The notes beneath the pieces were generated by a model. The model worked only from the letters and a program-made list of their open reading frames with translations, did not search any database and was not told the origin of the DNA. The position numbers and the translations under genes are program-made. DNA of 31,428 nt from a bacterium. GTDB taxonomy: Bacteria; SZUA-182; DTGQ01. Shown one piece after another: positions 1-12,695 of the stretch. The stretch spans positions 1-31,428 of the forward strand of contig JBFLZW010000014.1 of assembly GCA_040755755.1 (NCBI GenBank). The letters run 5' to 3'. The first letter of the stretch is position 1. Each line of letters begins with the position of its first letter.

Positions 1-127
1 TGTTTTTTATCCACCTTAAGGCTGCAAACTCGTCCACCGACATGGTCACTTTTTAATTTTTTAACTTATCCTACTTTTAACTATATAAAATATACTTTGT
101 CGATATAAAAATTAATAAAACTAAATG

Positions 128-401
128 GAATGGCACTTACATAAGCCAAGCTTATAATATAGAGAGGACACAAAGCACACAGGGAAAAAAGATCTCCCGC
201 AGAGACGCAGAGACGCAGAGAACAACCAATCCGGCAAGGTCCTGATGAAAGTCGGGATATATCGATGTGTCAACGGCCTGGAAGCAAGCAAAAAGTAAAA
301 AGGCACAAGGAGGAACTTGTTTTACTTTTACTTTTCAATGATATCCTCTGCGTCTCAGCGTCTCTGCGGGAGAATTACTAATTCTTATGTAAGTGCCATT
401 C
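128..401. mobile_element. MITE-like element, 18-bp TIRs, 10-bp target duplication
   Basis: A 274-bp non-autonomous element. The left end (128-145) reads GAATGGCACTTACATAAG and the right end (384-401) is its exact reverse complement. The direct repeat AAACTAAATG flanks it immediately on both sides (118-127 and 402-411), as expected of a 10-bp target-site duplication. There is no transposase inside. The interior has a second inverted repeat (194-220 against 346-372), so the whole unit could fold into one long hairpin. A 10-bp duplication falls within the range seen for IS4-family transposases, but assigning a parent element is a guess. The perfect ends and perfect duplication suggest recent insertion. 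Confidence 0.85.
194..372. repeat. Subterminal inverted repeat of the MITE
   Basis: Positions 194-220 contain overlapping copies of CGCAGAGA, and 346-372 hold the reverse complement with one mismatch in 27. The arms lie inside the 18-bp terminal repeats. Similar CGCAGAGACGCAGAG strings are common dispersed repeats in environmental bacterial genomes, from general knowledge. Here they appear to be part of the mobile unit. Confidence 0.75.
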
Positions 402-581
402 AAACTAAATGCCAATCTAACCATTTAATCTTCTTCCGGCTTCCAACTCTTGATTCCTGGCTCTTCTTGCACCAAAGTTTGAACAAAATTTCTATTGTAC
501 GGGCAGTAAGGGCCTAACCAAATAGCCTCACCAAAAGATATTAGTCACTCTCAAGTTCTCACTATATTATTATACACCAAA

Positions 582-10922: not shown

Positions 10923-12677
10923 TCAGGGTGTCCTCAGGACCGCCAGGTAGGCGTTGACCAGCCCGAATCCGAAATACTGGTCCCATCCGGCAGTGCCAAG
11001 GTCGGTGGCGCTCCCTTCAATGATTGAAACCACATCTGCCGGAGCAAGGGGAATGGTGCTCTTGCCGATAACCAGGGCAGCCACACCGGAAACCAGAGCG
11101 CAGGCGGGGGATGTTCCTTCCATGAAATAATAATAAAATGTGGTATAGTCGGTCCCGTTATGAGTCTGCTGCAGAATGCCGTCTCCGAATCCATCGGCGT
11201 TCTGGTCCACGCTCAGGTCTCCTCCCGGTGCGCAGACATCGACAAAGGTGCCATAATTGGAGTAAGAGGGGAGCGTATAATCGTAGCGGATGGAGCTTAC
11301 CGAGATCGGCTCCGGATACGAGGCCGGGTATTCGGGGGTGCTGGAGCCGGAATTTCCGGCGGAGCAGACGACAGTCACTCCAGCGTTGTAGGCATAGGTA
11401 ACAGCCGCTGCTTCCGTGGCTGAAGTACCGGGGCCGCCAAGACTCATGCTGATGACTCTGGCCCCGTTGTTCACTGCAAAATAAATCCCGTCAACTTCCG
11501 TGGTGATAACCACCCCTCCGACGTTGTCCATGACCTTGACCGGCATGATGGTCGCATTAAACGCCACTCCGGAGACTCCCAGAAGGTTATTCGTTGTCTG
11601 GGCAATGCATCCGGCCATATGCGTGCCGTGGCCGAAATCGTCATCCGGGAAGGCATCGTTATTGACAAAATCATAGCCTGGGGCAAAGAGAGTTCCTGCC
11701 AGATCCGGTGCCTGGGTGAAGGTCGCGTTTGTTTCAAAGGCGACTCCGGAATCCACAAGTCCCACCAAAACCCCCGCTCCTGCTCCGTAATCCCATGCAT
11801 AACTGCAATTCAAGCGGGGCAGGTGCCATTGGTAATTGTAATACGGGTCATTCGGGATGAAGTGTGGCCGGCGCAGGAAATTCGGTTCGGCATAAAGAAC
11901 CGAGGCCTCGGCTCGCAGCCGCTGGGCAGCCTGCAAGACCGTGATGGAGGAGGGAATACTCAAGACTGTATAGCCTGCATAGGGACTGGTATAAACCTCG
12001 CGGCATCCATGCCTGGTGCAAACCCGGCCGACCTCAGCAGCAGGAGTCCCGGGGGCGAATTGCACGACTACCTGATTTGCCCTGTAAGCGGGAATGCCCG
12101 GCAGATAGGCTACTCCAGCACCGAGAATTGCCGGAGGCTTATAGAGAATGCTCTTTGCTTCAATGCCGACTGTCCGCCGGTCTACCGGCGGCGGATTGGA
12201 AGCCGCCGTACGGGAAAGAGCGGCGCGGGGCGAAATCGACCATGGATTGGAAAACAGATTGAGTGCCAGAGCATTGAGATTGAGGAGGGGGGAAAAAGCC
12301 AGTTCATAGTTTATCAAGGAGCTTATGAAAGGCTCGAACATAAGCATTGGCCATGCCCCCCAGCCGGATGATTGCCCCCCTGACTGCCACATGGGAGCAG
12401 CCCATGAGGCTCCCGCATATGTCTGCGGATATAATAGACCTGCCCAGGGGAGCCCCCCCCAGGTGGGAAACAACGAGTGGCCACTGACCACTGGCCACTG
12501 ACCACTGACCACTGGCCACTGACCACTGACCACTGCTGGTGCAAGCCACTGGGCATGCACCCTGGTGAAATGCCCCGAAGTGAAAAATAGTGCAAGGATT
12601 ACCCACAGAATCAGGCCAGAAGCTGGCCGGGATAAACGGGATGAGATAAATTGCCTCTCTCTGGCCGGGTAGTGCAT
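10923..12677 (-). CDS. Secreted subtilisin-like serine protease (S8)
   Basis: 584 residues from the ATG at 12677; an in-frame TTG at 12695 behind GGAGG (12-base spacing) is an alternative start. A signal peptide runs to about residue 43 (ending VHA). It is followed directly by VVSGQWP repeats encoded by a DNA heptamer array, then a Pro/Ala-rich linker and a fervidolysin-like propeptide (around YRANQVVVQFAPGTP). The S8 catalytic domain has Asp309 in VGLVDSGV, His350 in GHGTHMAG and Ser523 in GTSPACALVSG. The usual GTSMAxP is changed to GTSPAC around the nucleophile, but the triad is intact. Expected to be an exported, autoprocessed endopeptidase. It is divergently oriented from the M16 peptidase pair, about 400 bp away. 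Confidence 0.92.
   Translation of the reverse strand: MHYPARERQFISSRLSRPASGLILWVILALFFTSGHFTRVHAQWLAPAVVSGQWPVVSGQWPVVSGHSLFPTWGGLPWAGLLYPQTYAGASWAAPMWQSGGQSSGWGAWPMLMFEPFISSLINYELAFSPLLNLNALALNLFSNPWSISPRAALSRTAASNPPPVDRRTVGIEAKSILYKPPAILGAGVAYLPGIPAYRANQVVVQFAPGTPAAEVGRVCTRHGCREVYTSPYAGYTVLSIPSSITVLQAAQRLRAEASVLYAEPNFLRRPHFIPNDPYYNYQWHLPRLNCSYAWDYGAGAGVLVGLVDSGVAFETNATFTQAPDLAGTLFAPGYDFVNNDAFPDDDFGHGTHMAGCIAQTTNNLLGVSGVAFNATIMPVKVMDNVGGVVITTEVDGIYFAVNNGARVISMSLGGPGTSATEAAAVTYAYNAGVTVVCSAGNSGSSTPEYPASYPEPISVSSIRYDYTLPSYSNYGTFVDVCAPGGDLSVDQNADGFGDGILQQTHNGTDYTTFYYYFMEGTSPACALVSGVAALVIGKSTIPLAPADVVSIIEGSATDLGTAGWDQYFGFGLVNAYLAVLRTP
12481..12536. repeat. CCACTGR heptamer tandem array inside the subtilase
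   Basis: Eight consecutive heptamers: seven CCACTGA/CCACTGG units and a terminal CCACTGC. A stray CCACTGG lies at 12546-12552. Read on the minus strand, three heptamers make one 21-bp unit encoding VVSGQWP, which appears twice plus a partial third. The array falls just after the predicted signal peptide. Because seven is not a multiple of three, gain or loss of one unit would shift the protease frame. Confidence 0.85.
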
Positions 12678-12695
12678 TTCTCTCAATTTGTCCAA

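What the first reader, a model, noticed from the sequence alone, without database searches (positions are those of the whole stretch)
118..411. Intact MITE with perfect ends and 10-bp target duplication
GAATGGCACTTACATAAG at 128-145 is exactly inverted at 384-401, and AAACTAAATG is duplicated immediately outside (118-127, 402-411). A near-perfect second inverted repeat (194-220 and 346-372) lies inside. The element is 274 bp with no coding capacity. The perfect flanks suggest recent mobility, so a parent transposase should exist in the genome.
Basis: seen in the sequence. Interest (0 to 1): 0.6.

Follow-up and report, generated by a model that had tools for sequence, protein, structure and literature searches.

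The report
IS4-type MITE family, many copies
A 274-base non-coding hitchhiker transposon, present in dozens of copies in this bacterium, has the same ends and the same 10-base target habit as a full-sized IS4-type jumping gene found in other bacteria, so it is a real but ordinary kind of miniature transposon.

Summary
Window 128-401 is bounded by exact 18-bp inverted ends and a 10-bp target duplication, with a 27/28 inner inverted repeat. Of 93 distinct element ends, 75 carry a YTAR core at the same place in the adjacent target (background 0.5%). An uninterrupted version of the window's target, with AAACTAAATG once, exists at G000:C45 and other contigs. A parent exists, but not in this assembly: a scan with the ends found a 1532-bp insertion sequence (L232:307-1838, L180:1462-2993) in a betaproteobacterial MAG with the same ends, a 10-bp YTAR-centred duplication and a 459-aa IS4-family transposase. 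The ends match the published IS4-subgroup signature (-AATR--------WTW) and duplication length (10-13 bp). Searches for this transposase in the window's genome and eight relatives found only remnants or distant relatives. Best reading: a new MITE family moved in trans by an IS4-subgroup transposase, mobile until recently; the helper is missing or unassembled here. New member of a known kind.

The parts
118..127 (.). left 10-bp target duplication AAACTAAATG (core CTAA = YTAR)
   Evidence: single copy in the uninterrupted site at G000:C45 and C35
128..401 (.). the 274-bp MITE
128..145 (+). left terminal inverted repeat GAATGGCACTTACATAAG, fitting the IS4-subgroup end signature -AATR--------WTW
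   Evidence: PMC2266710 Table 1
193..220 (+). left arm of inner inverted repeat (TCTCCCGCAGAGACGCAGAGACGCAGAG)
346..373 (-). right arm of inner inverted repeat, 27/28 complementary
   Evidence: folding z-score of the whole element -10
384..401 (-). right terminal inverted repeat, exact
402..411 (.). right 10-bp target duplication AAACTAAATG
103..517 (+). the target: a roughly 131-bp repeat (103-127 continued at 412-517) of seven copies in this genome, into which the MITE was inserted

Best explanation
A non-autonomous miniature transposon (MITE) of the IS4 family, IS4 subgroup. It keeps only the terminal inverted repeats that an IS4-subgroup DDE transposase binds and cuts. The transposase acts in trans, mobilises the element, and inserts it at targets of the form NNNYTARNNN with staggered cuts 10 bp apart; gap repair gives the 10-bp duplication. 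Shown here: ends, copies, duplications, target preference, uninterrupted site, and a full-sized insertion sequence with the same ends and target habit in another genome. Inferred: action in trans, the cut-and-fill step, and that a closely related transposase worked in this lineage until recently.
For: Copies: 100% identical at C45, and several more above 99%, C69, C36, C33 and C19 among them. Of 26 full-length copies examined besides the window, 21 have exact and different 10-bp duplications and 1 has one mismatch. Target: of 93 distinct ends, T at -6 in 97%, A at -5 in 98%, YTAR in 75, background 0.5%. Uninterrupted target with one AAACTAAATG at C45, C35, C12 and C31. Parent: L232:307-1838, 1532 bp, exact 10-bp duplication ACGTTAAGCC, and L180:1462-2993, one mismatch. 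It encodes a 459-aa protein scoring E=2.9e-68 to NF033592 IS4 family transposase and 4e-18 to PF01609, with the Y(2)R(3)E(6)K motif YARRWNVELDLRNLK. Ends and duplication length fit the IS4 subgroup in PMC2266710 Table 1. Precedent for trans mobilisation of transposase-less IS4-family cassettes: MIC231A1 by IS231A, as reported in PMC3913671.
Against: No intact transposase of this kind in the window's own assembly or eight relatives of the phylum; the parent found is in another phylum and shares only the ends with the MITE. Four of 26 full-length copies lack a clean duplication. Mobility was not observed directly.
Confidence: 0.93

Rival explanations
1. A MITE moved by a transposase of another family that happens to use similar ends, for example IS5 (known for YTAR targets).
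For: An IS5-like transposase fragment lies beside one end of this kind at C41:37678-38024; YTAR recalls the IS5 target (own knowledge).
Against: IS5 elements duplicate about 4 bp, not 10 (own knowledge). The C41 fragment is a small piece inside a mosaic, not an intact element. The intact elements found with these ends and 10-bp duplications encode IS4-family transposases.
Confidence: 0.03
2. A chromosomal repeat kept for a host function (RNA hairpin or terminator, like REP or ERIC) rather than an active transposon.
For: The element would fold into a very stable hairpin as RNA (-110 kcal/mol, z -10). For 16 of 22 copies no reading frame of 100 aa or more spans the site.
Against: Exact, different target duplications at most copies, near-identical copies, an uninterrupted site, and an insertion sequence with the same ends. 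Secondary use by the host is not excluded.
Confidence: 0.03
3. Copies were spread by recombination, or are assembly artefacts.
For: At least 20 contig ends lie inside this element, as expected where an assembler meets a repeat; four copies lack matching flanks.
Against: Twenty-two copies (window included) sit in different flanks with their own exact duplications.
Confidence: 0.01

Closest known systems
IS4 family, IS4 subgroup (De Palmenaer et al. 2008, PMC2266710)
   Same: End signature -AATR--------WTW (G-AATG-GCACTTAC-ATA), duplication of 10 bp within the stated 10-13, parent transposase with the YREK motif and DDE_Tnp_1 domain, parent length 1532 bp within 1400-1650.
   Different: The window element has no transposase, and its target core is a marked YTAR; whether any catalogued IS4-subgroup member shares this core was not checked, since the paper's target figure is not held.
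1532-bp insertion sequence at L232:307-1838 and L180:1462-2993 (JANYBQ010000031.1, JANYBQ010000388.1, Betaproteobacteria MAG GL140_6)
   Same: GAATGGCACTTAC ends (one end GAATGGCACTTACATAAG exactly) and 10-bp YTAR-centred duplication.
   Different: Autonomous; interior unrelated; other phylum.
MITEs with the same ends in Polaromonas (L166, L181, L188, L204), a Muproteobacterium (L233) and Lampropedia (L194)
   Same: Length 154-234 bp, ends and 10-bp duplications, nearly all YTAR-cored.
   Different: Interiors differ; other phyla.
MIC231 cassettes (Bacillus cereus group)
   Same: Transposase-less element of the IS4 family moved in trans by IS231A (PMC3913671, citing Chen et al. 1999).
   Different: IS231 subgroup, carries genes, different ends.

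Membership tests
MITE | short, non-coding, terminal inverted repeats | tested here: met
   274 bp, exact 18-bp ends, no credible ORF
MITE | multiple dispersed copies with target duplications | tested here: met
   26 further full-length copies examined, 21 with exact 10-bp duplications
MITE | ends shared with an autonomous element | tested here: met
   L232 and L180 insertion sequences in another genome; none intact in the own genome
IS4 family, IS4 subgroup (as non-autonomous derivative) | end signature -AATR--------WTW | tested here: met
   all seven specified positions agree with Table 1 of PMC2266710
IS4 family, IS4 subgroup (as non-autonomous derivative) | direct repeat of 10-13 bp | tested here: met
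   10 bp
IS4 family, IS4 subgroup (as non-autonomous derivative) | parent transposase with DDE domain and Y(2)R(3)E(6)K motif | tested here: met
   for the L180 parent: PF01609 4e-18, NF033592 2.9e-68, YARRWNVELDLRNLK; not available in the own genome
IS4 family, IS4 subgroup (as non-autonomous derivative) | mobilised in trans by that transposase | not testable with these tools
   needs an assay

The most novel reading that the evidence does not exclude
The terminal repeats have outlived their transposase in this lineage: the MITE family expanded to dozens of copies using a transposase that is now absent from the genome or was supplied only briefly by horizontal transfer, while the same end sequence serves two target habits in other bacteria, 10-bp YTAR-centred and 9-bp with a CAG or CTG core, so that one end family straddles two cut spacings.
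Probability: 0.25. Interest if true: 0.4.

Novelty: new member of a known kind. Interest (0 to 1): 0.27.

Why it matters
It identifies a young, high-copy MITE family in a sparsely sampled phylum (nine genomes held), links it by ends, target habit and duplication length to the IS4 subgroup, and gives a named full-sized parent candidate for an in-trans assay. It also accounts for at least 20 of the contig ends of this assembly.

Tried and rejected
Searching the literature for the end sequence and for the inner repeat gave nothing relevant. Plasmids gave only a 39-base match to the inner repeat and phages none. The IMG/VR scan with the ends gave 18 single matches, about what chance gives, and the MITE interior none. 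Lone ends in the own genome (C1, C22, C33, C49, C55, C72 and others) were read inwards: they are older short derivative families (about 120-485 bp) or lone ends, with no intact transposase found. PF13006 (IS4 N-terminal domain) was not found in any of the nine genomes of the phylum. The five PF01609 hits of the own genome are fragments or unrelated. The C35 hit is the C-terminal part of another IS4-type transposase interrupted by the 131-bp repeat.

Full report
OBSERVATION. The exact 18-bp inverted ends (128-145, 384-401), the flanking AAACTAAATG pair (118-127, 402-411) and the inner inverted repeat (193-220, 346-373, 27 of 28) are all present. The element is 274 bp with no credible reading frame.

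COPIES IN THE SAME GENOME. The window is contig C14 of a 5.26-Mb, 88-contig assembly, 97.6% complete. The 18-bp end occurs 134 times with up to 3 mismatches (backwards control 6) and 111 times with up to 1 (control 0). BLAST with the whole element finds one copy 100% identical (C45:16619-16892), several above 99%, and further ones at 89-97%. Of 26 full-length copies extracted besides the window, 21 are flanked by exact 10-bp duplications, each different; one has a single mismatch, one has three, and three show no duplication, possibly recombined or misassembled (cause inferred). At least 20 contig ends lie within the element.

TARGET. Over 93 distinct ends of this end family the adjacent 10 bp read NNNYTARNNN: T at -6 in 97%, A at -5 in 98%, and the full YTAR in 75 of 93, against a background frequency of 0.5%. 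For 16 of 22 copies no reading frame of 100 aa or more spans the restored target, so by this rough measure insertions are mostly between genes.

UNINTERRUPTED SITE. Window 103-127 joined to 412-517 is a roughly 131-bp repeat found seven times in this genome. Copies at C45, C35, C12 and C31 have AAACTAAATG once and no MITE. C71 begins with the MITE's right end in the same repeat but has a different right flank, so the filled repeat seems to occupy two places.

PARENT. One scan of 84,980 species genomes with GAATGGCACTTACMKAAG gave 96 stretches, about three times a rough chance estimate of 30 (own arithmetic), many with paired ends. Two copies of a 1532-bp element in a betaproteobacterial MAG have these ends and a 10-bp duplication: L232:307-1838 exact (ACGTTAAGCC) and L180:1462-2993 with one mismatch. 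It encodes a 459-aa transposase: NF033592 IS4 family E=2.9e-68, PF01609 E=4e-18, with YARRWNVELDLRNLK satisfying Y(2)R(3)E(6)K. The IS4-subgroup row of Table 1 in PMC2266710 gives ends -AATR--------WTW---- and repeats of 10-13 bp; the MITE end G-AATG-GCACTTAC-ATA-AG fits every specified position. Other short elements with these ends and 10-bp, nearly all YTAR-cored duplications occur in Polaromonas, a Muproteobacterium and Lampropedia.

PARENT IN THE OWN GENOME. A profile of four such transposases found in the phylum's nine genomes only weak matches: C35 of the own genome (E=6e-4), and a remnant and a distant relative in two family members. PF13006 was not found. The C35 protein is a different IS4-type transposase fragment. 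So an intact parent is missing from the assembly, or sits in its gaps.

MECHANISM. An IS4-subgroup DDE transposase recognising the ends moves the element in trans; this is inferred, with the published precedent of MIC231A1 and IS231A (PMC3913671). Identical copies with intact duplications indicate that this happened recently.

VERDICT. Observation confirmed, interpretation supported except that the parent is not in the assembled genome. A new family of a known kind.

Noticed in passing
window 103-127 + 412-517; also G000 C12, C31, C33, C35, C45, C71: A roughly 131-bp repeat without obvious terminal repeats, seven copies, ending ...TGTACGGGCAGTAAGGGCCTA, not found in eight relatives of the phylum; it looks mobile itself (one copy splits an IS4-type transposase gene on C35) and its family is unknown.
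   Followed up: partly
window 193-220, 346-373; L138:4160 and 4211; L074:2694; L243-L247: The inner repeat CTCCCGCAGAGACGCAGAGACGCAGAG also occurs outside the MITE in this genome, in a Thiodictyon plasmid and in five IMG/VR contigs; no paper in the library prints it.
   Followed up: partly
L156, L174, L197, L219, L221, L224, L227, L228: Short elements of other bacteria (mostly Gammaproteobacteria) with nearly the same ends have exact 9-bp duplications, mostly with a CAG or CTG core, with the end shifted by one base: a second cut spacing within one end family.
   Followed up: partly
G000 C13:21261-21404, C22:211041-211185, C22:160831-161315, C33, C49, C55, C72: Several older short families (about 145-485 bp) in the same genome share GAATGGCACTTAC ends and the YTAR target, suggesting repeated MITE births from one transposase lineage.
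   Followed up: partly
window 10923-12695 minus strand, around 12500-12600: A subtilisin-like protease ORF contains a tandem repeat read as VVSGQWPVVSGQWPV near its N-terminus; possibly an inserted short repeat.
   Followed up: no
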